Source: Candidatus Zixiibacteriota bacterium | Lineage (GTDB): Bacteria > Zixibacteria > MSB-5A5 > WJJR01 | Length of the DNA stretch: 32,062 nt | NCBI GenBank assembly: GCA_016199865.1 | Contig: JACQFV010000159.1 | Span: forward strand, 1-32,062 | Direction: 5' to 3' | Part shown: piece by piece, positions 5,030 through 31,636 of the stretch | Position numbering within the stretch: the stretch's first letter is position 1 | Layout: every line of letters begins with the position of its first letter | Made by a program: the position numbers and the translations under genes | The notes under the pieces: model-generated | What the model saw: only the letters and a program-made list of their open reading frames with translations | Databases searched by the model: none | What the model was told of the DNA's origin: nothing

Positions 5030-5106
5030 GGCGGTGTGGCTCAACTGGTTAGAGCGGCGGAATCATAATCCGCGTGTCCGGGGTTCGAATCCCTGCACCG
5101 CTACCA
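5030..5106 (+). tRNA. tRNA with CAU anticodon (elongator Met or Ile2)
   Basis: The 77 nt fold as a full cloverleaf. The acceptor is GGCGGTG with CACCGCT (first pair G-U), U8 is present, the D stem is GCTC/GAGC, the anticodon stem is GCGGA/TCCGC with loop ATCATAA (anticodon CAT), the variable loop is GTGTC, the T stem is CGGGG/CCCTG with loop TTCGAAT, and the discriminator A is followed by an encoded CCA. The C1-A72 mismatch of initiator tRNA is absent, so it is elongator Met or the lysidine-modified Ile isoacceptor; I cannot decide which. It is bordered on the left by an integrase remnant. Confidence 0.92.
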
Positions 5107-5139
5107 CTGCGGGCTGGGGATTGCCGGTCGGGTTGGACC

Positions 5140-6879
5140 ATGGCTGCTGACCATTCGGACCAGGAGAGGACAAACTTCGACGCGCCGCTGGCGGGCGGGA
5201 CGGTCGTTTCGCATTACCGCATTATCGAGAAGATCGGCGCCGGCGGAATGGGCGAGGTATATCTGGCCGAGGATACGGCCCTGAACCGGCCGGTGGCGCT
5301 GAAGTTCCTCTCTGGACGGTTGACCTCCGACGCCAGTCTGCGGTCACGCTTCACCCGTGAAGTGCAGGCGGTGGCCGCATTGAACCATCCAAACATCATC
5401 CACGTCTACGGGGTGTCCGAATTCGAGAATCGCCCCTTTTTTGCCATGGAATATGTGGAGGGGGAATCGCTGCGCGAACTGATCCAGCGTTGTCCCATCC
5501 CGATGGATCAGGTGCTCAGGATCGCCTTTGGCATCGGCGAGGGGCTGAAGGCGGCGCATCAGGTCGGTATTGTACACCGTGACGTCAAGCCGGCTAATAT
5601 CATTGTCGACCAAAGCGGCCATGTGAAGATCCTGGATTTCGGCCTGGCGAAGCGGGTCACCGATCCGGCGCTCACCAGCATGGGGTCTACTCTGGGCACG
5701 ATTTCGTACATGTCGCCGGAGCAGGCCCAGGGGCGCGAATTGGACCGGCGTTCCGACATCTTTTCCTTTGGGGTTGTCCTCTACGAGATGATCACCGGCA
5801 GACTGCCGTTCAAGGGCGACTATGACGCCGCGACACTGACGGCCATCGTCAATGAAACACCGGCGCCGCTGGCAGACCGTCGTCCGGACGCGCCGACGGC
5901 GCTGCAGCCGATCGTCGATCGGCTATTGGCCAAGGACGCCAACCACCGGTACCAGCAACTCTCTGAGGCGCTGACGGAGTTGGCAACGGTACGCGACCAG
6001 CTACGTTTGCCGACCGGCCAGCGGATTGCACCATCAAGGCGGACGAAGCAAAGAATCACCATCTACGCAGGTGCCGCCGTTGTGCTGGCCGTGCTTCTTG
6101 TTGCGTTCAGCAGATTTCTCGGCTCACGGGCGGATGTCGTGGCGCGCGGCGACAAACAAGCCGCCGTGGCGCCGGCCGATGCTGCGGCCAGCGTGAAGCA
6201 GGCCCATCCCGACACAGAGCCGATGGCGACAGTCGTAAACCATCCCGGCTCAAACGCAGGAAAACTTAGCCCTCCGTCTGAGGAGCGTGCCGCACCCGCA
6301 GCCCAGCCGATCAAAGCGCAGATCGAGGCTTCGAGCACGGCAGCGAACCGCACCAGCCAAGTGGACAATTCCGCCACGATCGCATGGCAAAAACCTGATA
6401 GCATTGTCAAAAACCCGGAGCTGCAACCGACGACGCAGACGGTAGATGAACTGCAGAGCACTCCGGAGAAACCACCGTACGGGGCAATACAGTCGGGCAG
6501 TGCTTCGGCAACTGTGCCGTCGACAGGAGCAAGTGTCGACTCGCGGCGCCAAGACTCCCTCGATATTGATGGCGTCATCCGGCGATTCTGGAAGACCCTG
6601 GAGAACCGGCGGGTTTCGGAACTCAAAGATATATATCCCCGCATGGCCGCCGACCGGGAAGCGATCTGGCGGCGTTTTGTGGACAATGCCAAAGACCTGC
6701 AGGTGGGATCGACGATCGCGAGTCTCGACCTGGGCGACAATGAGGCCGATGCGGTCGTATCAGTGAACATGGCGTTCAGGGATTCGCGTGGTTCCCGGAA
6801 ACAGACCGTGCGCTATGAGCTGCGGCTGCGTAAAACCGGAAGCCAATGGGTGATCGTGAACATGGAGCAGAGCCGCTGA
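5140..6879 (+). CDS. Transmembrane Ser/Thr protein kinase (PknB type) with C-terminal NTF2-like domain
   Basis: The track start at 5074 lies inside the tRNA, so ATG 5140 is chosen (579 residues). The kinase domain spans about residues 26-285, with glycine loop GAGGMGEV (33-40), catalytic Lys in VALKF (about 54), HRDVKPAN (146-153), DFG (166-168) and SPEQAQG in the activation segment. All are the residues needed for an active Hanks-type kinase. A juxtamembrane stretch leads to one transmembrane helix (about 306-326). A Pro/Ala/Ser/Thr-rich linker then leads to a domain at about 480-579 (IDGVIRRFWKTLENRRVSEL) that looks NTF2/DUF4440-like and would be extracytoplasmic as a sensor. No PASTA repeats are present. 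The outer-membrane protein gene follows 21 bases later, suggesting a pair. Confidence 0.88.
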   Translation: MAADHSDQERTNFDAPLAGGTVVSHYRIIEKIGAGGMGEVYLAEDTALNRPVALKFLSGRLTSDASLRSRFTREVQAVAALNHPNIIHVYGVSEFENRPFFAMEYVEGESLRELIQRCPIPMDQVLRIAFGIGEGLKAAHQVGIVHRDVKPANIIVDQSGHVKILDFGLAKRVTDPALTSMGSTLGTISYMSPEQAQGRELDRRSDIFSFGVVLYEMITGRLPFKGDYDAATLTAIVNETPAPLADRRPDAPTALQPIVDRLLAKDANHRYQQLSEALTELATVRDQLRLPTGQRIAPSRRTKQRITIYAGAAVVLAVLLVAFSRFLGSRADVVARGDKQAAVAPADAAASVKQAHPDTEPMATVVNHPGSNAGKLSPPSEERAAPAAQPIKAQIEASSTAANRTSQVDNSATIAWQKPDSIVKNPELQPTTQTVDELQSTPEKPPYGAIQSGSASATVPSTGASVDSRRQDSLDIDGVIRRFWKTLENRRVSELKDIYPRMAADREAIWRRFVDNAKDLQVGSTIASLDLGDNEADAVVSVNMAFRDSRGSRKQTVRYELRLRKTGSQWVIVNMEQSR

Positions 6880-8602: not shown

Positions 8603-11600
8603 ATGGCCAAGAATCCATTCGATTCCTATGTCTCTGCCGTCGAGAAAGACTTTCAGACCGGCAGGGCAACGGAGCATACGCATAGGCCGGCCCTGAAGAA
8701 GCTCTTGGAGGCCCTCGCGCCAGGTGTGACTGCGACGAACGATCCGAAGCGGATCGAATGTGGCGCGCCGGACCTGCACGTGTCGCGAGACTCTGGACAC
8801 GGCCCCATCACTATCGGTCAGGTTGAAACAAAGGACATCGGGAAGAACCTCGACGAGGTCCTGAAGACCGAGCAACTTGAACGATATCTGGCCGCGCTGC
8901 CCAACCTTGTCCTCACCGACTACCTGGAGTTCCGTTGGCTCGTAGACGGAGCTCTGCGGCTCTCCGCGCGATTGGCGCGCCCTGACAGGCAGAAAAAACT
9001 CCGGGAAGAGCCGGGCGGGAACGTGTCGGTTAACGATCTCTTGGATTCCTTTCTCTCGCACCGCCCTCAACCAATCAGCACTCCGAAAGAACTGGCGGTT
9101 CGAATGGCCCGGCTGACGCACGAGATCAGAGAGATCGTCGTCGCGGCCTTCGAGAAGGGTGTTGTTTCCGAAACTCTAAGCGATCTGCGCCGGTCGTTTG
9201 AGACGGTCCTCCTTCCCGATCTGACGGACCGCGCCTTTGCCGACATGTATGCCCAGACGCTGTCCTATGGTCTTTTTGCGGCACGCTGCAACCACACGGG
9301 GAGTGAACGATTCCGCCGTTTAGGAGCCGCGGCTGAAATTCCCAAGACGAATCCTCTTCTGAGGCAGCTATTCGAAACGGTTACCGGAACGGCGCTCGAT
9401 GAGGAACCCTACGTAGGATTTGTTGACGATTTGGCACAGCTCTTGGCAGATTCCGACATTGAAGCCATTCTCAGCAATTTTGGCAAGAGGACCGCCCGCC
9501 AGGACCCGGTGGTCCATTTCTATGAGACGTACCTTTCCGAATACGATCCCAAGCTGCGCGAAACACGAGGCGTGTACTACACGCCGGAGCCGGTTGTGTC
9601 CTACATCGTCCGCTCGGTCGACCACCTGCTGCGGACGCGCTTCAATTGCGAGTCCGGACTTGCCGACACAGCCAGGGTCACCTACCAGAAAGAAACTCAG
9701 ACAGCAGACAAGACCCAGATCATTTCAGAAATCGCGCCCAAGGTACTGGTGCTGGATCCGGCTTGCGGCACTGGGACCTTCCTTTATGCGGTGGTCGATC
9801 TCATCCGCAGTGAGTTCGCCAAGCAAGGCAACGCCGGGCTTTGGTCCGGGTACGTGCGCGATCATCTTTTGCCGCGGCTGTTCGGCTTTGAATTGCTCAT
9901 GGCGCCATACGCGGTCGCTCACTTCAAGCTGGGGATGCAGTTGGCAGCTCAGGACATGACCTTATCCGAGCGCAGTCGATGGGCCTATGATTTCTCCGGC
10001 GCTGAGCGCTTGGGGGTCTACTTGACGAATACCTTGGATGAGGCCGAACGGCTGATCCAGGAGCAGTGGGGCTTCTCGCGAACGCTTGCATCGGAAGCCA
10101 ACGCCGCTTCCCGGATCAAACGTGACTTGCCGATCATGGTGGTGCTCGGTAATCCCCCCTACTCGGGCCATTCGGCGAATCGCAGTTGGGAACTCGAAAA
10201 TGGTAAGAAAGTGCACAACTTCATCGGGCGTCTGCTGGAAGACTACTACAAAGTTGACGACCAGCCCCTCGGCGAGCGAAATCCAAAATGGCTGCAAGAT
10301 GACTATGTGAAGTTCATCCGCTTCGCCCAGTGGCGCATCGAACAGACTGGAGCTGGGGTACTCGCCTTCATCACCAATCACAGCTACATCGACAGTCCAA
10401 CTTTCCGGGGGATGCGCCAGCAATTGATGCGCGCTTTCACCGACGTCTACATTTTGGATCTACATGGAAATGCAAAGAAAAAGGAACGTTCACCTGACGG
10501 TTCAAAGGACGAGAATGTCTTCGACATTCAGCAGGGCGTGGCCATCGGCATTTTCATTAAAGAGAAAGGTAAGTCTGGCCCGGCCGCGGTCCATCACGCC
10601 AACTTCTGGGGGACAAGAGGCGGCAAGCACGAGAGTCTCTTCGCCGAAGACATCTCGAACACCACTTGGGCAGAAGTCGTTCCCCAGAGTCCCTTCTACC
10701 TCTTCACGCCTCAGGATGCGGATCTACAGAGGGAATACGAGCGCTGGTGGAAAATTACCGAAATCATGCCTGTCAATGTGCTCGGCTTTCAGACACACAG
10801 AGATCACTTCGCAGTCGACTTCGACAGAGACGAGATGCGACGACGCATTCAGGAGATGCGATCGACCAGACTCGACGACGAGGAGTGCCGTGCAAAGTAT
10901 GAAGTCAAAGACAATCGGGATTGGAGCCTCGCCGGCGCCAGGACCCGGCTTCGGGCAGACCGCCGTTGGGAGGAGAGGCTGATTCGCTGTCTGTACAGAC
11001 CGTTTGATTGGCGCTGGTGCTACTTCAGCGAAGTGGCCATGGACTACCCTCGACGAGAATTGTTGGACCATGTTTGGGGACGAGAGAACTATTGTCTACT
11101 TGCATCGAGGCAACAGGCCACCGTAGGCTACCGGCATTGCTGGGTGGCGAAAGAGCCTCCGAACGACTGTGTTGTATCCACGACGAGTAGGGAAGCAAAC
11201 CAGGCGTTCCTGCTTTACACCTACCCACCAAGTGGGGAGCACCCCAGAGCCAATCAGGAAGAGGCCGACTTGCATGTTTGGCCGTCCGGGAAGGACGGTC
11301 GACGTCCGAACTTCATGCCTGCATTCGTTCGGGAGATGGAGGGCCTTCTTCGCCTGCGGTTCATCGCCGACGGTCGTGGTGATTTGAAGGAGACTGTTGG
11401 GCCAGAGGATATTCTTCACTACATGTACGCGGTGTTTCATTCGCCTACGTACCGCACCCGGTATGCCGAGTACCTAAAGATCGATTACCCGCGTTTGCCT
11501 TTGACTTCCGACATGACGCTCTTCCGGTCCCTCTGCCATTTTGGGTCAGACCTGATAGGGCTGCATCTTCTGGACTCGCCGCGTTTGATGGAGCCCGGCA

Positions 11601-11995
11601 TCAAGTATCCCGTTGCGGGCTCAAATGTCGTTGAAAAGGGGCATCCCAAGTATCTCGCACCCGGTGCGCCAGAACCGAGTAGCGGAATCCCCCTTGCCGC
11701 GGGACGCGTTTACGTCAACAGGGGCGACGTTAGATCAAGAGTAGCGGCACAGTATTTCGATGGTGTGCCCGCAGAGGTATGGGATTTTCACATTGGCGGA
11801 TATCGGGTATGCGAGAAGTGGCTCAAAGACCGCCAGGGTAGAACGCTGACGTTCGATGAACTCGACCATTACCGGGGAATGGTAGCCGCGCTCAGAGAGA
11901 CGATTCGTATTATGGCCGAAATTGACGTCGTGATTGATGACCACGGCGGCTGGCCGGCCGCGTTTGCATCCGGAAAGCACGAAGATTCCAGATAG
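8603..11995 (+). CDS. Single-chain restriction-modification enzyme, type ISP/IIG-like
   Basis: The 1130-residue product combines restriction and modification. Residues about 50-80 show a PD-(D/E)xK nuclease pattern (APDLHV then IGQVETKDIG). A helical connector follows. The N6-adenine methyltransferase domain has motif I LVLDPACGTGTF (about 381-392) and catalytic NPPY (about 517). The C-terminal third (for example FHSPTYRTRYAEYLKIDYPR and YFDGVPAEVWDFHIGGY) is the target-recognition part common in type ISP enzymes. It lacks the SF2 helicase of LlaGI-type proteins (about 1570 residues), so it is nearer to type IIG. It would methylate and cut foreign DNA without partners, and no separate R, M or S gene is nearby. 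It lies between a recombinase fragment and a 62-bp repeat, which suggests horizontal arrival. Confidence 0.88.
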   Translation: MAKNPFDSYVSAVEKDFQTGRATEHTHRPALKKLLEALAPGVTATNDPKRIECGAPDLHVSRDSGHGPITIGQVETKDIGKNLDEVLKTEQLERYLAALPNLVLTDYLEFRWLVDGALRLSARLARPDRQKKLREEPGGNVSVNDLLDSFLSHRPQPISTPKELAVRMARLTHEIREIVVAAFEKGVVSETLSDLRRSFETVLLPDLTDRAFADMYAQTLSYGLFAARCNHTGSERFRRLGAAAEIPKTNPLLRQLFETVTGTALDEEPYVGFVDDLAQLLADSDIEAILSNFGKRTARQDPVVHFYETYLSEYDPKLRETRGVYYTPEPVVSYIVRSVDHLLRTRFNCESGLADTARVTYQKETQTADKTQIISEIAPKVLVLDPACGTGTFLYAVVDLIRSEFAKQGNAGLWSGYVRDHLLPRLFGFELLMAPYAVAHFKLGMQLAAQDMTLSERSRWAYDFSGAERLGVYLTNTLDEAERLIQEQWGFSRTLASEANAASRIKRDLPIMVVLGNPPYSGHSANRSWELENGKKVHNFIGRLLEDYYKVDDQPLGERNPKWLQDDYVKFIRFAQWRIEQTGAGVLAFITNHSYIDSPTFRGMRQQLMRAFTDVYILDLHGNAKKKERSPDGSKDENVFDIQQGVAIGIFIKEKGKSGPAAVHHANFWGTRGGKHESLFAEDISNTTWAEVVPQSPFYLFTPQDADLQREYERWWKITEIMPVNVLGFQTHRDHFAVDFDRDEMRRRIQEMRSTRLDDEECRAKYEVKDNRDWSLAGARTRLRADRRWEERLIRCLYRPFDWRWCYFSEVAMDYPRRELLDHVWGRENYCLLASRQQATVGYRHCWVAKEPPNDCVVSTTSREANQAFLLYTYPPSGEHPRANQEEADLHVWPSGKDGRRPNFMPAFVREMEGLLRLRFIADGRGDLKETVGPEDILHYMYAVFHSPTYRTRYAEYLKIDYPRLPLTSDMTLFRSLCHFGSDLIGLHLLDSPRLMEPGIKYPVAGSNVVEKGHPKYLAPGAPEPSSGIPLAAGRVYVNRGDVRSRVAAQYFDGVPAEVWDFHIGGYRVCEKWLKDRQGRTLTFDELDHYRGMVAALRETIRIMAEIDVVIDDHGGWPAAFASGKHEDSR

Positions 11996-23139: not shown

Positions 23140-24432
23140 TCAGCGCTCCCGGGCAAAGTAGGTGACCGCCCAGTCGGCGATCCGGTGCGATTCCAAAAGT
23201 GAAAGAGGAGCCCGCAGCGCGCACAGACCGGTCTTGCCCCCGCCTTGTCGAGTCTTGATGATCAGACGACAGATGGAGTCGGTGGGAATGAGATTGCGAT
23301 ATCGGATTGCGGAAGTCGAATCGGAGCCGTAGGCGTAGAGCGACGCATAGGAGTCCGTGCGATAGAAACCATGGACGGAATCCGGAAGGTCGGAGCCGTG
23401 GCAACGGTTGCAGGACTGGGCGAAGAGCGGCGCGAGGTCGTCAACGTAGGTGAGCAGAGCCCGGTATTCCGACGCGGCGGAATCGAACAGGCGATTGCCA
23501 TAGGGATCATTCATGCCGTCGACCGAGAGACGATAGTGATGGAACAGCTTCTGTTCTGGGAAGGAGAGCGTGACGATTCGTCCCAAATCGGAGCTCAATG
23601 CTGCGGCTGCCGGGGCATGAGGCAATTCGGGTGAGTCCAGGTCGACCAAGTGGTAACGGCTCGTGTCTGAAGCGTCGGCGGAATCCGGACGGGTGTGGAA
23701 CTCCACGCGAACATGCGTGAAGTCGGCCGTCTGGGTCGTCACCTGATCCGCTGGCCCACTGATTGGAGGATCCGAGGCGTCGCCATGGAGTATCCATTCC
23801 CGTACCAGGTCGGACTCGAAGGCGGTCAGACCGGCACGCCGATACTCCCGGCCGGTGAAGGCGGTCTTAGCGGCCAGTTGGCATCGGTCGTTGCCGGCAA
23901 TCAGATCGGGCGACCGATTCAAGTCGGCTTCATCACTACCGAAGGCGTACAGCGCCGCGCGCGAGTCGGTCCGATAGTTACCCGATGCCAACGTCTGGTT
24001 GTGGCAACTGTTGCACCGTGCCGCGAAGACAGGCGCCATGTCGCGATCGTATCGCAGGCCAGGGGCCACCCCCAGTTCGATTGGCTTCTCGGAAACATCA
24101 ATGCCGCGTTCGTAGCGCAGACCGGACAGGCGCACCAGAAGAGGCGTGCGCAGACTGTACGCCGGCGAGACGGTGATGGTCAACAGCGTCGCCGACAGCG
24201 AGTCGACGTCTGCCGCAGTGACAGCGAACGGAGTGCCGTCGGCGCTCCAAACGCCAAGGCCCGTCTTATCGATGAGGGGATTGAGGGCATCGGGAAAACC
24301 CACGATCAGATGGACGCCATCGGGGGCCATGACTCGAAAGGTCGCAAGCGGCGGAGACTCGACCGGGCTCTCGCAGCCAAGGATCAGGAGGCAAGCGGGC
24401 AATGTCAGGAGATTCCGTCGGGAGATTCGCAT
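23140..24432 (-). CDS. Lipoprotein with two duplicated CxxCH (cytochrome c-like) modules
   Basis: The 430-residue product has a lipoprotein signal peptide with lipobox LILGC (Cys about 20). An N-terminal Ig-like region follows. Then come two homologous modules: DMAPVFAARCNSCHNQ...NYRTDSRAALYAFGSD (about residues 130-220) and DLAPLFAQSCNRCHGS...FYRTDSYASLYAYGSD (about 330-425). Between them lies a second Ig-like stretch. The CxxCH motifs fit covalent c-type haem, as in planctomycete-type cytochrome domains. A redox role on the envelope is inferred. It is the last gene of the pgs operon, starting 4 bases after the barrel gene ends, so it is translationally coupled. Confidence 0.82.
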   Translation of the reverse strand: MRISRRNLLTLPACLLILGCESPVESPPLATFRVMAPDGVHLIVGFPDALNPLIDKTGLGVWSADGTPFAVTAADVDSLSATLLTITVSPAYSLRTPLLVRLSGLRYERGIDVSEKPIELGVAPGLRYDRDMAPVFAARCNSCHNQTLASGNYRTDSRAALYAFGSDEADLNRSPDLIAGNDRCQLAAKTAFTGREYRRAGLTAFESDLVREWILHGDASDPPISGPADQVTTQTADFTHVRVEFHTRPDSADASDTSRYHLVDLDSPELPHAPAAAALSSDLGRIVTLSFPEQKLFHHYRLSVDGMNDPYGNRLFDSAASEYRALLTYVDDLAPLFAQSCNRCHGSDLPDSVHGFYRTDSYASLYAYGSDSTSAIRYRNLIPTDSICRLIIKTRQGGGKTGLCALRAPLSLLESHRIADWAVTYFARER

Positions 24433-24436
24433 CAGA

Positions 24437-25609
24437 TCACCAAGAACGCGCTAAGCGGGCGCCGAACTGATTGTCGTTGTAGGCGCCAAAATCGGACGTC
24501 TCCGGTCGATTGGACGTCGCCTGCGTCCAATGCTCCAGCAGGCGAATCTGCCAGCCCCCACCGGCAGGGATCCGCACCTCCGACTGTAGGCGCCACTCGT
24601 GGTCTCGGCGACCGACATGGTAGGGATCGGCCGGTTTCTGTGACGTATAGAGTTCGAGTTGGTAAGCGACGTCGATACCGACCGTCCACGACGACTTCGA
24701 TTGGTATTGCAGGCCCGCCTCCCACTCGTGTTCGTGGTGGCTGACGTCGATCACGGCGTCCGCCTGGCGAGCACCATCGGCGCCGAAGTGCGAGTATCGG
24801 TAGTCCCAACTGGCCTCCCATCGATCGTGAATGGGCATCACCCAACCGTACGAACCCCACCAAGTCGTGCTGTTGCGCTCGTTGAACGCGCGGTTGTAGG
24901 ATGTGCGTTTCCATCCCGCCGCCAGCCGCTGTTCCGCGGGCAGGCCTTGTCGCAAACGATACTCCAGGTCCCCCGTCCAAGAATGGTACCCGGCTCGGGC
25001 ATACGACGGCGTGGCCGGATGAGGATTTGCCGTGTCCCGAAGGAGCAGGTCCCGCAGATAGAAGTGGGGGGTCCAGCCGACGTGGGCAATCAAGGCCCGG
25101 CGCGGGCTGGCCCAGCGTCCCTCCAGATCGTAGTCCAGCCAGTTCTTGATCACATTGCGGGCGTACCAGTGGCCGTTGCCGGAGAGCCGCAGACGATACT
25201 CGCGGCGCGATTTCGCGCCGCGTCGCCGTTCCACGAACGCACCCACGTCGGTGATCCAGTCGTCGGCGCTCAAGATGGAAAATTTGTTGGGATGGGCGCG
25301 GGACGTGAACAGATCCCGGTCACGGCGGGAGTAATCGAGTATGTTGTCGTCGTAATACCCACGCAAATAGGAATTGCCGTTCCAGCGCCAGCGCGGACGA
25401 CTGCTCCGACGGTGCGGTGAACGGCTCCGGGGCGTGCCGGCAGTTCGGGCCGGCCGGTTGAGCGAGTCACCGGATGAAGAGGCGTTAAGCGGCGACCCCA
25501 GGGACGTGGCGTCGCCGGCCAGAAACACCGAAAGAAACAACAAGCCGGCCGATGTTATTCGCAGCGGCACATCGCTGGATTGATTAATCCTTTTCTTCGT
25601 TGCCCACAT
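24437..25609 (-). CDS. Predicted outer-membrane beta-barrel protein in the pgs operon
   Basis: The track start (25816) lies inside the upstream gene; ATG 25609 (MWATKKRINQSS, 390 residues), which overlaps that gene by 26 bases, is more likely. A signal peptide (ITSAGLLFLSVFLAG) is followed by an Arg/Pro/Ser-rich linker and about 300 residues of alternating strands rich in Tyr and Trp (NGNSYLRGYYDDNILDYSRR, YRLRLSGNGHWYARN, WEASWDYRYSHFG, WRLQSEVRIPAGGGWQIRLL). The C-terminus is aromatic (ARSW). This is the look of an outer-membrane barrel. Placed right after pgsBCW and a periplasmic protein, it is a candidate exit port or anchor for polyglutamate, though nothing in the sequence proves that. 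Confidence 0.7.
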   Translation of the reverse strand: MWATKKRINQSSDVPLRITSAGLLFLSVFLAGDATSLGSPLNASSSGDSLNRPARTAGTPRSRSPHRRSSRPRWRWNGNSYLRGYYDDNILDYSRRDRDLFTSRAHPNKFSILSADDWITDVGAFVERRRGAKSRREYRLRLSGNGHWYARNVIKNWLDYDLEGRWASPRRALIAHVGWTPHFYLRDLLLRDTANPHPATPSYARAGYHSWTGDLEYRLRQGLPAEQRLAAGWKRTSYNRAFNERNSTTWWGSYGWVMPIHDRWEASWDYRYSHFGADGARQADAVIDVSHHEHEWEAGLQYQSKSSWTVGIDVAYQLELYTSQKPADPYHVGRRDHEWRLQSEVRIPAGGGWQIRLLEHWTQATSNRPETSDFGAYNDNQFGARLARSW

Positions 25610-26483
25610 CGTCGGCCGGGAGGGTGAATCGGAGGGCGACGCCGGGCGCGTCGGTCGAGGTGGGCGTGACCCCCAACTCATGCTCGCCAGGCGGGATGGC
25701 AACATAGATGGTGCGGCTCTTGCCGGGAACCCATTCGCCTTCCTCTTCGAATTCACTGTTGACCGCCTTGGTCGTGGACAATTCCTCCTGCTTGAGCGGC
25801 TTCGCGTCCAGCGCAAGGTTGAGCGCGTATTTTTGAGTTCCCTTCATCGTGGCGCCATACACCAGCCGGGTTACCACGCGCAAGCGGGTCGGGCCGATCG
25901 CCCGGACTTTGACCGGTTTGGTCGGCGTCGCGAGATGATAATCGAGTCGCCGCTCATGATAGATGAGAGTCAGGGTGCGATCCATCGCGACCGGGTACAA
26001 AGGCGATTGATCGGCGTGAGGCGCGGGGCGAGCAAGCTGGAATCGCAAGCCGCAGTACGGCCCGTCCGCTTCCAGCAGGCGGACGTGATAGGTGTGCAGA
26101 CCCGTTTCGACCGTGAATGAGAATTTGCGTGACAGCCCCGGTTGTTCGGTCTGGCCGACCCATTCGGCGTCGGCGGATGCCGTCGTGGTTCTGACGTCTC
26201 GGGCCGTGTCGACGCCACTCTGGACCAGTACACGATAGTGGGCGGAGTCTTTGACGAATCCAGCCGGCAAAGCCAGACGGACGATCGCGGTCAGTGTGCC
26301 GGGGCCCGAGGCCTTCACTTCCAAGGTCGAGTCCAGAGCCAGCCGATAATACGCGCTTTGGCGACCGGCAATATTCAATGAGAGGACCGTGCCGCTCGTC
26401 GGCGCCAGAAGCTCAGAGGCGTCGGCGGAGAACGCGACCAGCGCGGTCATCACAAGAACAAGGAAGAACAAGCGGCGCGGCAC
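25584..26483 (-). CDS. Secreted/periplasmic protein of unknown function in the pgs operon
   Basis: GTG 26483 follows GGGGGAGGTCATT. The 299-residue product has a signal peptide (RLFFLVLVMTALVAFSADAS). It holds two beta-rich halves, the first around TVLSLNIAGRQSAYYRLALD and the second around RTLTLIYHERRLDYHLATPT, both followed by strands such as LEVKASGPGTLTAIVRLALP and VKVRAIGPTRLRVVTRLVYG. This suggests an internal duplication of a jelly-roll-like domain. The end is acidic. It starts 12 bases after pgsW and overlaps the barrel gene, so it likely acts between the two membranes with both. Confidence 0.75.
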   Translation of the reverse strand: MPRRLFFLVLVMTALVAFSADASELLAPTSGTVLSLNIAGRQSAYYRLALDSTLEVKASGPGTLTAIVRLALPAGFVKDSAHYRVLVQSGVDTARDVRTTTASADAEWVGQTEQPGLSRKFSFTVETGLHTYHVRLLEADGPYCGLRFQLARPAPHADQSPLYPVAMDRTLTLIYHERRLDYHLATPTKPVKVRAIGPTRLRVVTRLVYGATMKGTQKYALNLALDAKPLKQEELSTTKAVNSEFEEEGEWVPGKSRTIYVAIPPGEHELGVTPTSTDAPGVALRFTLPADDVGNEEKD

Positions 26484-26495
26484 AATGACCTCCCC

Positions 26496-27617
26496 CTACG
26501 CGTTCGTGAATTGAGTGCGGCGACGAAACAGCCATGGGCGCAGATCGACGCGGATGACAATGAACACGACCACGGTGAGGATTACGGTCAGGATGATGGC
26601 GCTGGAGATGTTGTATTGGTCGCGGAAATACAGCGACCCTTCGCCGACGGTTGGGGGATCGGGAGTGACGACGGTGGGCAGCTCGAATTGATCGGCGATA
26701 TGGACGACGTTGGAGAGATTGATGATCGGGAGGCCGCGCTCGGCCATGCGATTGAGGACGGCCCGGACCGGATAGTTGCGCCGCGCCAAGTGACGGGTCA
26801 CGCCGGGTGGAATCAGTTTGTTGTTGAGTGCCCCACCCATGTCCGCCAACCCGCCACCAATGTTGACGAAACAGGAGACCGATCCGGCCGACCCGGCGAT
26901 CGAATCATAGATCTGCATCCGACGTTCGATGTTGCCTTCCAGTGACCGCTCCTCGATCAGCTTGACTTGATTGCGCGCAATGGCCTGGCGCACCATGTTA
27001 CGGCCATCGGGAGACAACCCCCGTCCGTAGTCACCACCGCCGCCCAATGAGGCGGCCACGGCGTGGAAGTCCCAGACCCCGCCCTTGGCGACAATGTCCT
27101 CCATGTCCAGCCAGGTCAAGTCCGGGCGGGTGGCGCCCCAGTCGGAGGCGCCGACCGAAACGATGGAGATCGGCGTGAGTTCCAAGGCCGCGCACGCGGC
27201 ATAAAAGGCGACATTCCACCCGGGCAACGAGCCGGTCATCCCGACCGCGATGGTATCACCCTTCTTCACGCCCGCGCGATTGAACAGATCGACGAATCCC
27301 GCGGCGAAGTTGGGGTTGGTGGCCAGTATCTTGGCCGTCGCCACGCCGCGGTCCGAGGTAATCGGGGTGCGCTCCTCGCCGATCAGACCCGATCCCCACG
27401 GATCATTACGGGCGTCGATCTTGATCCCTTTCTCATTCAGGAATGACTTGACCTCGCGCTGCGCGGCCTTGGCCAGTTCGGCGGCACGCAATTTGGCGCG
27501 ATACCGCGGCTGCTGGATCGGCCGCGCCGTGTGCTCGGCGGCGTAGAAGATCAACACCGCGAAGAGCGCCAGGCCGACCAGCGCGCCATCACCGATCCGT
27601 CCCTCGCGCCAGGTCAT
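26496..27617 (-). CDS. pgsW: Poly-gamma-glutamate system protein (PgsW type)
   Basis: ATG 27617 overlaps the pgsC stop as ATGA, giving 373 residues; the track start in another gene's frame is rejected. It has an N-terminal transmembrane helix (GALVGLALFAVLIFYAAE), a large alpha/beta domain (GVKKGDTIAVGMTGSLPGWN, LELTPISIVSVGASDWGATR, FVNIGGGLADMGGALNN) and a C-terminal helix (SAIILTVILTVVVFIVIRV). This matches the poly-gamma-glutamate system family that accompanies pgsB and pgsC in many non-Firmicute genomes. Its biochemical role is not settled; the position suggests a partner of the synthase on the outer face of the inner membrane. Confidence 0.82.
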   Translation of the reverse strand: MTWREGRIGDGALVGLALFAVLIFYAAEHTARPIQQPRYRAKLRAAELAKAAQREVKSFLNEKGIKIDARNDPWGSGLIGEERTPITSDRGVATAKILATNPNFAAGFVDLFNRAGVKKGDTIAVGMTGSLPGWNVAFYAACAALELTPISIVSVGASDWGATRPDLTWLDMEDIVAKGGVWDFHAVAASLGGGGDYGRGLSPDGRNMVRQAIARNQVKLIEERSLEGNIERRMQIYDSIAGSAGSVSCFVNIGGGLADMGGALNNKLIPPGVTRHLARRNYPVRAVLNRMAERGLPIINLSNVVHIADQFELPTVVTPDPPTVGEGSLYFRDQYNISSAIILTVILTVVVFIVIRVDLRPWLFRRRTQFTNA

Positions 27618-28105
27618 ACGATCACGTCGCTCCCCAAGGCGATGTCCCCGCCGGTGAGAATCATGAGCAGGAGCCGGATGAAGATGGCCGCGATGACCAT
27701 CATGGACAAGGTGGCGACCACGCCCTGGCGGTCCATCCAATTGGCGATCAGCCCGGGGATGATCAGGCCGATCGTCTGAAATTCCAACGATGACTGACCC
27801 ACACGAAACACCAACAGATCGCGGGACAGCCAGCCCAGGAAGAATCCGATCAGGACCGTCAGAACGATCCGGCGCAATCCAAAGATGAACGCGTAGGTCG
27901 ACAGAAGTTTCACGAGCCCGAAGGTCGCGACCGCGACCGCGACCGTGCCCACGACCCGGGTGGGTTCGTGGATCATCAGCGCGATGTACCCCGGCACCAC
28001 CATGCCGCCGGCGGCCAGACCCAGCGTCTCCGCAAAGACCAGACTGATCACCAACCCCAGTCCGACCGAGTGGATGATCAGATCACGCAGCGCTTCGGTA
28101 GACAA
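27614..28105 (-). CDS. pgsC: Poly-gamma-glutamate synthesis membrane protein PgsC/CapC
   Basis: A TTG start at 28105 follows GAGGACAGGAAG and overlaps the pgsB end by 23 bases; the track start (28252) is inside pgsB. The product has 163 residues, close to the family (about 150). It contains several membrane helices with the PgsC signature LVFAETLGLAAGGMVVPGYI near the N-terminus, then FGLRRIVLTVLIGFFLGWL and a repeat-like TIGLIIPGLIANWMDRQG. PgsC forms the membrane-bound synthase with PgsB. Gene overlap implies translational coupling. Confidence 0.88.
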   Translation of the reverse strand: MSTEALRDLIIHSVGLGLVISLVFAETLGLAAGGMVVPGYIALMIHEPTRVVGTVAVAVATFGLVKLLSTYAFIFGLRRIVLTVLIGFFLGWLSRDLLVFRVGQSSLEFQTIGLIIPGLIANWMDRQGVVATLSMMVIAAIFIRLLLMILTGGDIALGSDVIV

Positions 28106-29273
28106 CTTCCTGTCCTCGGTGTTGAAAGTATAGGGCGAGTTCCTCACCCAGACCGACAATATTGCCGATGCCGATGACCATGACCGGCCGGTGTTCCGCC
28201 ACCTCCAAGACCTGCTCGAACAGCCGTGCCGCGTCCTGGCCGCCGAAGTCATGCACGCAGGCTCTGTTCATTCCCAGGCCGATCGCGGCTTGATGGACGG
28301 GACGCGTTGATTCACCGCAGATGAAGTATTGGTCGGCCTCGACCCCGGTGGCAATAAACTCCGCGAGCTGTTCAGCACGCGAGATGCGATCCTTACGGCA
28401 GGTCACCAGCGCCACCAACTTTCCCTCTCTGGGCCGCCAGGGCGCCAGACGTTCCCAGAGGATGCGGTAACTATCAGGGTCATTGGCGGCAAAGGCATTC
28501 ACGAAGGTGATCGAAGCGCCAAAGGCATTCAGAGTGTGGATGCGCAGCGCGCCCGGGTCGGGCGTGGCGGCATGCATGCCGGCCAACGCCGAATCCGGAT
28601 CGATGCCGAACCATCCGGTCACCGCCAGCGCCAGGGCGACGTTTTCCTTGTGTTCGAAGTACGTGAAGCCGGCCATCATGGCGTCGGTGACAGCGTCTGG
28701 CCGTGATACGGCAATCGCCGATTCACGCCCTCGCGCCTGTTCGATCAGCGGGCCCAGATGCGTCTGCTCCGCGGTAAAGAGGATTCCCCGTCTCGGGGTG
28801 GTGCTGGCGAGCGCCCGGGCGACGTCGGTGACGGTGGGACCCATCTCATCCAGGTGGTCGGCCCGGACATTCGTGATCACACCAACCGTCGCCCGGATCA
28901 GTTTGTCTTCCGCCACCTTTTGCAGCTCGGGTTTGACCGCCATGCATTCGATCACCAGGGCCTGAGCCCCCTGATCGCGGGCGCGTCGGACGATGCGGAC
29001 CTGCTCAATGATGTTCGGCTTGCCGGCCCGGGCGATGGGAGCTTCGACGCCATCGGGAAAGATGAAGCGGGGCTTTGTGCCGGTTGTCTTGGCCACTGTG
29101 CGGTATCCGCCGGCCCGCATTCCCGACGCAATCAGGCGGGTGACCGAGGACTTGCCCCGGGTGCCGTTGACATGAATTCGAACGGGAATGTCCGCCAGGG
29201 TTCGTCGATGGCGATGTGCTTCGTACAACAAGTACGCCGCCATTCCCAGAATCTCGGCTCCGATTACCCACAT
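28083..29273 (-). CDS. pgsB: Poly-gamma-glutamate synthase subunit PgsB/CapB
   Basis: The 396-residue product fits the PgsB/CapB family (about 390). After an N-terminal membrane anchor (ILGMAAYLLYEAH) comes the Mur-ligase-type ATP-binding loop HVNGTRGKSSVTR (about residues 34-46). Then follow the TTGTKPR motif, ALVIECMAVKPELQ and ITNVRADHLDEMG, all characteristic of this amide ligase. It polymerises glutamate through gamma-carboxyl linkages using ATP. It heads the six-gene pgs operon. No CapA/PgsA-type gene, usual in Gram-positive loci, is found within the window. The gene starts 69 bases after the large dockerin protein gene on the same strand. Confidence 0.92.
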   Translation of the reverse strand: MWVIGAEILGMAAYLLYEAHRHRRTLADIPVRIHVNGTRGKSSVTRLIASGMRAGGYRTVAKTTGTKPRFIFPDGVEAPIARAGKPNIIEQVRIVRRARDQGAQALVIECMAVKPELQKVAEDKLIRATVGVITNVRADHLDEMGPTVTDVARALASTTPRRGILFTAEQTHLGPLIEQARGRESAIAVSRPDAVTDAMMAGFTYFEHKENVALALAVTGWFGIDPDSALAGMHAATPDPGALRIHTLNAFGASITFVNAFAANDPDSYRILWERLAPWRPREGKLVALVTCRKDRISRAEQLAEFIATGVEADQYFICGESTRPVHQAAIGLGMNRACVHDFGGQDAARLFEQVLEVAEHRPVMVIGIGNIVGLGEELALYFQHRGQEVVYRSAA

Positions 29274-29342: not shown

Positions 29343-31589
29343 TCAGGCGCAGGGGTTGCAAATCGTCGTCGCCGGATCAGCGCCACGGAACGCCACGCCG
29401 ATCATCCTCACGACGTCGAGGACGTCGGTGACACCGTTGCAATCGAGATCGGTTTGTTGCCTCGGGCAACCGGGGTCGGTCACAGCGGGGCTGCCGCGAA
29501 AGGCCACGCCGATGGTCTTGACGACGTCCAGTACATCGGTAACGCCGTCGCATTGCGGATCGTGATGGCAGGGGCAGGTGCAATTCGGGTTGTATGACCC
29601 TTTGAACAGGCCGGTCTGGCCGGTGCCCAAGTAGATGTTGGCGGCAGGGCCGGCGGGGTCCAACTCCAGCGAGTACAATTCCGAGTCAGGGAGATTGCCG
29701 GAGATATTCGACCAACTGCTGCCGCCATCCCCCGACACAAAGACCCCACCCCCAAAGGTGGCGGCAAATAATCGTGTACTGCTGGCCGGATCGATGCGAA
29801 TCGCGCGCACGGAATGAGTCGTCAGCAAGCTCGTGAGGGGGCTCCAGGTTGCACCGTTGTCCGAGGAAGCATACACGTGGCCGCTGTCGCAGCCGGCATA
29901 GACGCGACCGGACGTCGTCGGATCGAAATCGATTGTTCGGATGAAAGCATCATTTGCATGAAAACCCGCGGCTGTCGCAACGTGTGTCCAGTTCGTGCCG
30001 CCATTGGTCGAACGGTAGAGGTAATCAACATCGGTTCCGGCGAGGACGGTCGACGTCGCGGATGGAGACACTTCCAATGACCGCATCGAAGTCGAAAACG
30101 GGATCGAGGCGCCGTTCATGTTGGACCAACTGGTGCCGCCGTTGGTGGTCTTGAATACGCCATTGCCGGTCCCGGCGTAAACGACCGTGGCGGACCCGGG
30201 AACGACCGCGATGCGGCGGACAAATGTGTTCATGCCGGTGGTATCCGTCAACACCCATGTCTGGCCGTTGTCGATGGATTTCAGCACTCCGGTGGCGTAG
30301 GCCCCTGCATACAGTGTGCCCGGAGTTGACGTGCGATCCAGATCCTCGATGGAATTGCTCGTCGGGACCGAGGCCTGTATCCAGCTCGATCCGACGTTGT
30401 CGGAGTACCAAATCCCATCGCCAAAGCCGGTGGCCGCGATCAGTCGGCCGGTATTGCCGAAAACGATGTCGCGAACGGCGGTCCCCAGCATTCCCGTGTT
30501 CCGCGCACCGAACGTTGCGCCGCTGTCGGTGGAGCGATAGACGCCTTCTCCGGCGGTCCCCACGAGCACTTCCACGCCGGCGCCATCGGACCATCCCGTG
30601 TTGACAAGAGCCGGCATGGCCGGCAACCCGGTTGACACAGGCCACCCCTGGTTCACATCGCCGAGGGCCCGTCGGAAGAAGCCGCCCACGTCGAGCGCCG
30701 TCATGCGGTAACCCTGAGTGAACAGGACGCACGTCGTATTGGAATCGGGGAGTGGATGGGTAGTTCCCACGCCGTTGATGGCCTCCCACACGCCAAAGAC
30801 GCCGTTCGCATTGTTCTTGTACACGCCGCGACCAGCCGTCCCGATGATCAAGCTGGCTTCGGGATTGTTGGGGCTGATGGCGATGCCCATGACCGTGCTG
30901 CGAATGCCGGTTCCGCGCTGCACCTGATTCCACGACGTGCCGCCATTGAGAGTGACAAAGAGGGCGCCGCCGGAGGGTATGTCGCCGATCGAACCCCCGG
31001 CGTACGCGGAATCGCGGCCAAAGACGGCGACGCTGCGAACGTGTTTGAGTTCCACCCCGGAGGTATCGTCCCTCACCGGCGATAGACTCCAAGTGCCCGA
31101 AGCTCCGCCCCCGGTCGAGATATACACCCCATCGCCGAACGTACCGGCATACATCCTCCCGGTGATGTTGTCGCGCCCCAGGGCGCGGATCGACACCAAT
31201 GTCGGCAGCACCGACGACCAGGTGGCGCCGCCGTCGAGTGAGCGGAAGATCCCATCATTGGTCCCGGCGAAGACGTTGAGGGAACTCACCGCCAAGACAG
31301 AACGCACATAGGTATTGGTCATGCCCACGTTGCCGGCTTTCCACGTGACGCCGCCATCGCTGGATTTGTAGACGCCCGATCCGAAGGCGCCCGCGTAGCG
31401 GACCTGCGCATTGTCCGGCGCGACGCTGATCGCATCAATCACCTTCCACTGTGGCCCGACCCCAACCCATGCCGCCACGACGGAGGAGCCGAACAGAATG
31501 ATAAGAATAAAAAAACAGCCGCTCACGACAAGCCGGACACACTGATCTGCGAACTTCAAGCCGGATATCATGCGATGCAACTTCATCAT
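29343..31589 (-). CDS. Large secreted BNR/YCF48-like propeller protein with double dockerin tail
   Basis: With ATG 31589 (or 31586) the product has about 748 residues; the track start (31631) has no ribosome binding site. A signal peptide (RLVVSGCFFILIILFGSSVV) is followed by about twelve to fourteen repeats of the sortilin/BNR type. Each has the Asp-box-like GxxWxxxN or S-DGG-TW pattern (VYKSSDGGVTWKAGNVG, VLKSIDNGQTWVLTD, VYASSDNGATWSPLTS), forming one or two beta-propellers. The C-terminus carries two dockerin-like Ca-binding repeats (DPQCDGVTDVLDVVKTIGVA and DLDCNGVTDVLDVVRMIGVA). It is probably exported or surface-bound. It lies upstream of pgsB on the same strand and could be co-transcribed with it. 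Confidence 0.85.
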   Translation of the reverse strand: MMKLHRMISGLKFADQCVRLVVSGCFFILIILFGSSVVAAWVGVGPQWKVIDAISVAPDNAQVRYAGAFGSGVYKSSDGGVTWKAGNVGMTNTYVRSVLAVSSLNVFAGTNDGIFRSLDGGATWSSVLPTLVSIRALGRDNITGRMYAGTFGDGVYISTGGGASGTWSLSPVRDDTSGVELKHVRSVAVFGRDSAYAGGSIGDIPSGGALFVTLNGGTSWNQVQRGTGIRSTVMGIAISPNNPEASLIIGTAGRGVYKNNANGVFGVWEAINGVGTTHPLPDSNTTCVLFTQGYRMTALDVGGFFRRALGDVNQGWPVSTGLPAMPALVNTGWSDGAGVEVLVGTAGEGVYRSTDSGATFGARNTGMLGTAVRDIVFGNTGRLIAATGFGDGIWYSDNVGSSWIQASVPTSNSIEDLDRTSTPGTLYAGAYATGVLKSIDNGQTWVLTDTTGMNTFVRRIAVVPGSATVVYAGTGNGVFKTTNGGTSWSNMNGASIPFSTSMRSLEVSPSATSTVLAGTDVDYLYRSTNGGTNWTHVATAAGFHANDAFIRTIDFDPTTSGRVYAGCDSGHVYASSDNGATWSPLTSLLTTHSVRAIRIDPASSTRLFAATFGGGVFVSGDGGSSWSNISGNLPDSELYSLELDPAGPAANIYLGTGQTGLFKGSYNPNCTCPCHHDPQCDGVTDVLDVVKTIGVAFRGSPAVTDPGCPRQQTDLDCNGVTDVLDVVRMIGVAFRGADPATTICNPCA

Positions 31590-31636
31590 CCCCTTTGTCG
31601 ATGCTGGAAGTGCTTCTGAATCTATCGGCATGTATT

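What the first reader, a model, noticed from the sequence alone, without database searches (positions are those of the whole stretch)
23140..29273. Six-gene poly-gamma-glutamate operon with periplasmic, outer-membrane and haem-lipoprotein partners
pgsB, pgsC and pgsW overlap or touch, and the next three genes (secreted protein, predicted barrel, lipoprotein with two CxxCH modules) continue with a 12-base gap, a 26-base overlap and a 4-base gap. Such packing argues for one functional unit. Gram-positive loci have PgsA and no outer-membrane part. This arrangement could be a polyglutamate assembly and export route for a two-membrane envelope, with a barrel exit and an unexpected redox lipoprotein.
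Basis: partly seen in the sequence, partly recalled or inferred. Interest (0 to 1): 0.78.

Follow-up and report, generated by a model that had tools for sequence, protein, structure and literature searches.

The report
Polyglutamate operon with outer-membrane exit barrel
A bacterial gene set for making the polymer poly-gamma-glutamate is accompanied, in three groups of two-membrane bacteria, by a polymer-binding-like periplasmic protein and an outer-membrane pore, which suggests how this polymer leaves such cells, a step for which we found no description.

Summary
pgsB, pgsC and pgsW match their curated families. The next two genes belong to families with no database name: X (secreted) and Y (barrel). 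Across three phyla, 41 pgsW loci also carry X; in the 36 where all five genes are readable they share one strand with near-zero gaps. X is absent from essentially all genomes without this operon. The five gene trees are congruent.

AlphaFold2 gives Y as a confident 14-strand barrel, like the open pores CymA and OmpG. X is a tandem pair of sandwich domains of the carbohydrate-binding-module type, as in cellulose escort protein BcsB, and is unusually basic. PgsW is a two-helix membrane-anchored alpha/beta protein. The window genome has no PgsA/CapA.

Best reading: a synthesis, periplasmic escort and outer-membrane exit route for a gamma-glutamyl polyanion, built like cellulose secretion from different parts. 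The route is inferred, not shown; uptake remains possible.

The haem lipoprotein is real and operonic but occurs only in three genomes of the window's family, so it is an accessory. A second pgsW type, with gamma-glutamyltranspeptidase and a TRAP permease, lacks X and Y.

The parts
28083..29273 (-). pgsB: poly-gamma-glutamate synthase (Mur-ligase type), P-loop NGTRGKSS intact
   Evidence: TIGR04012 435.6 bits vs cut-off 222.7; PF08245
27614..28102 (-). pgsC: inner-membrane partner of PgsB (TTG start)
   Evidence: TIGR04011 122.9 bits vs 96.45; PF14102 111.8 bits
26496..27617 (-). pgsW: inner-membrane anchored protein; helices 10-28 and 337-356 flank a periplasmic alpha/beta domain
   Evidence: TIGR04332 303.4 bits vs 100; model of W plus X, mean pLDDT 92.4
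25584..26483 (-). X: secreted periplasmic protein, two tandem CBM-like beta-sandwich domains, basic in most members
   Evidence: unnamed family, linked to pgsBCW in 41 loci; halves align with hhalign E 3.4e-31; fold matches CBM35/36/6 and BcsB CBDs
24437..25609 (-). Y: outer-membrane 14-strand beta-barrel (alternative GTG start at 25570)
   Evidence: AlphaFold2 pLDDT 83.9, 14 strands between residues 75 and 389; Z 24.2 to CymA and 21.9 to OmpG
23140..24432 (-). Z: lipoprotein with two CxxCH motifs; lineage-specific accessory
   Evidence: invariant cysteines and histidines; only in G000, G129, G130, gap 4-5 bases in all three

Best explanation
The five genes pgsB-C-W-X-Y encode a dedicated synthesis and secretion line for a gamma-glutamyl polymer in two-membrane bacteria. 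PgsB with PgsC polymerises glutamate at the inner membrane (established for the families, inferred here). PgsW, anchored by two helices, holds an alpha/beta domain on the periplasmic side and occupies the place that PgsA has in Gram-positive loci. X, a basic tandem CBM-like protein, receives and guides the polyanion through the periplasm, docked on PgsW. Y, a 14-strand open barrel, lets it out through the outer membrane. Architecturally this resembles cellulose secretion (BcsA synthase, BcsB escort with CBD plus flavodoxin-like domains, BcsC barrel), but built from unrelated proteins. The haem lipoprotein is an accessory of the window's own family whose role is open. Shown: gene content, linkage, folds as predicted, exclusivity. 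Inferred: the product, direction of transport, W-X docking, order of steps.
For: Conserved order B-C-W-X-Y in 36 of 36 readable loci, one strand, median gaps -8, -4, 7 and 2 bases. X found in 16 of 19 pgsW genomes and (weakly) 1 of 113 others in the phylum, in 7 of 14 versus 0 of 381 in Bacteroidota, and in 37 of 39 in a third phylum (Fisher 1e-16 and 1e-11). The X-less pgsW genomes whose locus was read (3 in the own phylum, 6 in Bacteroidota) are all of the GGT/TRAP type; one further Bacteroidota match is a broken fragment. Y strong in the same 16 genomes and otherwise only two marginal hits. Tree distances of the five genes correlate, rho 0.60-0.88, 0 of 500 permutations as high. Y is a 14-strand barrel closest to CymA and OmpG; 1 of 37 members hits the polysaccharide outer-membrane barrel EpsL. 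X resembles CBM domains and the CBDs of BcsB and is basic: median pI 9.5, 37 of 40 above 8.5, against 43 of 125 secreted or membrane neighbours. The joint W-X model has pTM 0.81, more than two unplaced domains of this size would allow (inference). BcsB and BcsC anatomy: PMC11379886. The published PGA capsule model has no outer-membrane part: PMC5542703.
Against: No assay; polymer not demonstrated in any carrier. CymA and OmpG are uptake-type channels, so the fold does not give direction. Inferred lumen-facing residues of Y are nearly neutral (19 basic, 16 acidic on average), with no strong sign of a polyanion channel. The window's own X has pI only 7.2. CBM-like sandwiches are common (Z 8-10). 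The W-X model was made as one read-through chain, which favours contact.
Confidence: 0.58

Rival explanations
1. X and Y retain or anchor poly-gamma-glutamate at the outer surface or in the periplasm rather than export it: Y is a surface attachment or general porin and X a polymer-binding tether.
For: X is basic and CBM-like, which suits binding; the barrel lumen is not markedly positive.
Against: A tether needs no 14-strand open barrel; no other exit component recurs in the loci.
Confidence: 0.17
2. The barrel works inward: it is a porin for glutamate oligomers or gamma-glutamyl compounds, and the operon recycles rather than secretes.
For: CymA and OmpG, the nearest folds, are uptake channels (direction from general knowledge); the other pgsW class carries GGT and a DctM TRAP permease.
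Against: The X-Y class lacks GGT, TRAP or hydrolase genes in a conserved position and has the ligase PgsB and PgsC throughout; the one polymer-operon barrel family that a Y protein matches, EpsL, belongs to polysaccharide biosynthesis.
Confidence: 0.13
3. The PgsB-type ligase makes a short gamma-glutamyl modification of an envelope component, not a free polymer, and W, X and Y deliver or display it.
For: No polymer has been shown; PgsB-like ligases are related to FolC and Mur ligases.
Against: PgsB and PgsC exceed equivalog cut-offs for the polymer synthase.
Confidence: 0.08
4. The haem lipoprotein is an essential redox part of the polymer machine.
For: Gap of 4-5 bases after Y in all three carriers; CxxCH motifs invariant at 54% identity; no close copy outside these operons among 132 genomes.
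Against: Absent from all other 38 X-carrying loci, some of which are cut short downstream.
Confidence: 0.04

Closest known systems
Gram-positive PgsBCA(E) / CapBCADE poly-gamma-glutamate systems
   Same: PgsB and PgsC equivalogs adjacent and in the same order
   Different: No PgsA/CapA (PF09587) in the window genome or most own-phylum carriers; PgsW, X and Y instead
Francisella CapBCA and Fusobacterium/Cetobacterium pgsBCW (Gram-negative, PgsW type)
   Same: pgsB-C-W order; Cetobacterium annotated pgsBCW; Francisella capA is described as a hypothetical poly-gamma-glutamate system protein in PMC5362203
   Different: The Cetobacterium locus has GGT, TRAP, AstE-like and DUF6305 neighbours and no X or Y; the Francisella locus was not examined here
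Bacterial cellulose secretion BcsA-BcsB-BcsC
   Same: Inner-membrane synthase, periplasmic protein with CBM-like domains plus an alpha/beta domain (BcsB: CBD plus flavodoxin-like; here split over X and W), outer-membrane barrel
   Different: 14 not 16 strands, no TPR region in Y, X has no membrane anchor, no sequence similarity
EpsL (XrtB/PEP-CTERM polysaccharide outer-membrane protein, TIGR03014) and BBP2 barrels
   Same: Outer-membrane barrel in a polymer operon; 1 of 37 Y proteins matches EpsL at 8.6e-5, 2 match BBP2_2
   Different: The window's Y and the other members do not match; operons differ
CymA and OmpG monomeric porins
   Same: 14-strand barrel, Z 24 and 22
   Different: 8-9% identity; other gene context

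Membership tests
PgsB (TIGR04012) | score above curated equivalog cut-off | tested here: met
   435.6 vs 222.7 bits
PgsC (TIGR04011) | score above curated equivalog cut-off | tested here: met
   122.9 vs 96.45 bits
PgsW (TIGR04332) | score above curated cut-off | tested here: met
   303.4 vs 100 bits
PgsBCA/CapBCA (Gram-positive type) | PgsA/CapA partner (PF09587) | tested here: not met
   no match in G000 (94% complete) nor in 10 of the 12 other X-carrying own-phylum genomes searched
Poly-gamma-glutamate producer | gamma-linked glutamate polymer outside the cell | not testable with these tools
   needs chemistry
Outer-membrane beta-barrel (Y) | closed antiparallel barrel with even strand number and signal peptide | tested here: met
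   14 strands, pLDDT at or above 90 for 255 residues; Z 24.2 over 272 residues to CymA; signal peptide judged by eye
BcsC | 16-strand barrel behind a periplasmic TPR solenoid | tested here: not met
   14 strands, no helical region ahead of the barrel; feature from PMC11379886
BcsB | two CBD plus flavodoxin-like repeats in one membrane-anchored chain | tested here: not met
   X has two CBM-like domains only; the alpha/beta domain is in separate PgsW, whose fold was not searched alone
EpsL (TIGR03014) | match of the window protein to the family model | tested here: not met
   P0005 no match at 0.001; 1 of 37 relatives matches
c-type cytochrome (Z) | CxxCH haem-attachment motifs | tested here: met
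   two, invariant in three proteins; Pfam hits all below cut-off
c-type cytochrome (Z) | covalently bound haem | not testable with these tools
   needs protein

The most novel reading that the evidence does not exclude
PgsW-X-Y is a previously undescribed, dedicated trans-envelope secretion line for poly-gamma-glutamate, shared by several diderm phyla, that reproduces the logic of the cellulose BcsB-BcsC route with unrelated proteins and supplies the missing outer-membrane step for this polymer.
Probability: 0.45. Interest if true: 0.75.

Novelty: new variant of a known kind. Interest (0 to 1): 0.62.

Why it matters
Poly-gamma-glutamate capsules are predicted in many diderm phyla, but a published model of the system has no outer-membrane component although diderms need one (PMC5542703). 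X and Y are concrete candidates for the periplasmic and outer-membrane steps, with a defined taxonomic range and a clean contrast class (pgsW with GGT and TRAP, without X and Y). They also give two unnamed protein families a likely function and a way to tell secretion loci from other pgs loci in annotation.

Tried and rejected
Sequence searches of solved structures with W, X and Y profiles gave only chance-level hits. A first joint W-X alignment put X rows on W and was discarded; it was replaced with one holding eleven read-through rows from other loci. PgsW has not been searched by fold alone: X filled the hit list of the joint model, so nothing is claimed about its nearest fold. Lumen charge of Y was tested as support for a polyanion pore and did not give it. 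Y and X are unrelated by profile comparison. Promoter and terminator scans were at chance level. A DNA pattern for CxxCH was mis-specified and is not used. Literature searches for PgsW or for outer-membrane export of poly-gamma-glutamate found nothing describing X or Y; the library is open access only, so absence there is weak. The third phylum could not be named.

Full report
What is there. Six genes lie on the minus strand between 29273 and 23140, in the order pgsB, pgsC, pgsW, X, Y, Z, with overlaps or gaps of at most 26 bases. PgsB, PgsC and PgsW exceed the curated cut-offs of their NCBIfam models. X and Y match no Pfam or NCBIfam family. Z has a lipobox and two CxxCH motifs. The 26-base overlap of X and Y depends on the start codon; a GTG at 25570 would leave a 13-base gap.

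Linkage. A tblastn of the six proteins against pgsW loci found X and Y right after pgsBCW in the same phylum and in Bacteroidales. I then took wide flanks of pgsW loci from three phyla and searched them with iterated profiles. Forty-one loci hold W and X; 36 hold all five genes readable, every one on a single strand in the order B-C-W-X-Y, with median gaps of -8, -4, 7 and 2 bases. The five incomplete loci lie at or near contig ends. No other neighbour is conserved across all phyla: own-phylum loci of families f17 and f18 often have an ECF sigma and zinc-finger anti-sigma pair upstream, and Bacteroidota loci have an LVIVD-repeat protein and often an HGSNAT-type acyltransferase.

Exclusivity. 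In the own phylum, X occurs in 16 of 19 pgsW genomes; the only other hit among 113 genomes is marginal (E 7e-5). In Bacteroidota, X occurs in 7 of 14 pgsW genomes and in none of 381 others. In the third phylum pgsW is in 39 of 39 genomes and X in 37; the two without X have a single, short pgsW whose neighbourhood I did not read. Y gives strong hits in the same 16 own-phylum genomes and only two marginal ones elsewhere. Distances in the five gene trees correlate at rho 0.60 to 0.88, with no permutation in 500 reaching the observed value, and in the pgsW tree all 39 X-linked pgsW rows used there fall on one side of one branch (support 88/83). The five genes therefore travel as a unit.

A second class. 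The X-less loci are also consistent: a DctM-type TRAP permease, an AstE/AspA-family enzyme, DUF6305, a gamma-glutamyltranspeptidase, then pgsB-C-W, in own-phylum, Bacteroidota and Cetobacterium loci. In the third phylum a second pgsW sits in a GGT-W-TRAP-AstE-DUF6305 cluster without pgsB or pgsC. One locus (L080) has pgsBCW followed by an HGSNAT-type acyltransferase and neither set. PgsW alone is thus not diagnostic of the secretion-type operon; X and Y are.

Structures. Y, folded with 37 family members, is a 14-strand barrel with mean pLDDT 83.9 and 255 of 390 residues at 90 or more; the poor part is mainly the N-terminal signal and linker. Its best solved relatives by fold are CymA (Z 24.2, rmsd 3.2, 272 residues) and OmpG (Z 21.9, rmsd 3.5, 263 residues). 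W and X happen to be in one reading frame, so I modelled them as one read-through chain purely as a device; mean pLDDT is 92.4 and pTM 0.81. X is two beta-sandwich domains that align with each other as profiles at E 3.4e-31 and match CBM35, CBM36, CBM6 and related modules at Z 8-10, and BcsB of cellulose synthase with both domains, though in a different relative orientation (rmsd 17-19). W has a helix at 10-28, an alpha/beta domain and a helix at 337-356, so both ends are expected in the cytoplasm and the domain in the periplasm (inference from the arginine-rich C-terminal tail). A pTM of 0.81 for two domains of about 365 and 290 residues implies that the model places them relative to each other with some confidence; the covalent link weakens this.

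Charge. X is basic across the family: median pI 9.5, 37 of 40 above 8.5, compared with 43 of 125 predicted secreted or membrane neighbours (Mann-Whitney 1e-10). This suits a polyanion partner. The window's own X is an exception at pI 7.2, and the inferred lumen of Y is nearly neutral.

PgsA. The PgsA/CapA domain PF09587 is absent from the window genome and from 10 of the 12 other X-carrying own-phylum genomes searched; where it occurs in other carriers it lies outside the B-C-W-X-Y run.

The haem lipoprotein. Z follows Y with gaps of 4-5 bases in three genomes of one family, at 54% identity, with all haem-motif residues invariant, and has no close copy outside these operons in 132 genomes. It is absent from the other 38 X-carrying loci, a few of which are cut short downstream. 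It is a genuine operon member here but not part of the conserved machine.

Mechanism. PgsB and PgsC make the chain at the inner membrane; PgsW is the anchored periplasmic partner; X binds and escorts the chain; Y is the exit. The comparison with cellulose secretion is anatomical: BcsB has CBD-like domains fused to flavodoxin-like ones and BcsC ends in a 16-strand barrel behind TPRs (PMC11379886). Y has no TPRs and 14 strands, X has no anchor, and none is related in sequence, so this may work like a BcsB-BcsC route but is not a member of it. A published capsule survey states that diderms need an extra protein for the outer membrane, yet defines the poly-gamma-glutamate group by CapB and CapC with no such part (PMC5542703). 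F. nucleatum is cited as the first Gram-negative shown to make the polymer (PMC3815933).

Weaknesses. Product, direction and binding are untested. Uptake or tethering by X and Y would fit the same genes. The named genomes available here were few, so the phylum range beyond these three is unknown.

Noticed in passing
L123, L126, L131, L132 (third phylum): A second pgsW lies between a gamma-glutamyltranspeptidase and a DctM TRAP permease, AstE/AspA enzyme and DUF6305, with no pgsB or pgsC: PgsW has a role apart from synthesis.
   Followed up: partly
G135 phylum (L027, L081, L114-L133): pgsW in 39 of 39 and X in 37 of 39 genomes: the operon is close to core in this unnamed phylum, many members having two pgsW genes.
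   Followed up: partly
G007:C51:48872-49063: A Y fragment with an internal stop in a genome that lacks pgsW but shares its genus with a carrier; possible decayed operon.
   Followed up: no
L030, L031, L034, L037, L042 upstream of pgsB: ECF sigma factor and zinc-finger anti-sigma genes directly upstream of pgsB in two own-phylum families, suggesting stress control.
   Followed up: partly
L025, L066, L067, L070, L080, L083: HGSNAT-type membrane acyltransferase next to pgs operons, mainly Bacteroidota; possible polymer modification.
   Followed up: no
window 8603-11995 +: Type ISP restriction-modification enzyme (PF18135 272 bits).
   Followed up: no
window 5074-6879 + and 5030-5106 +: Ser/Thr protein kinase ORF whose mechanical GTG start overlaps a tRNA-Met gene; the true start is probably further in.
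   Followed up: no
window 29343-31631 -: Large BNR/YCF48-like repeat protein with a C-terminal cysteine cluster and repeated VTDVLDVV motifs, directly upstream of pgsB but not conserved there in other phyla.
   Followed up: no
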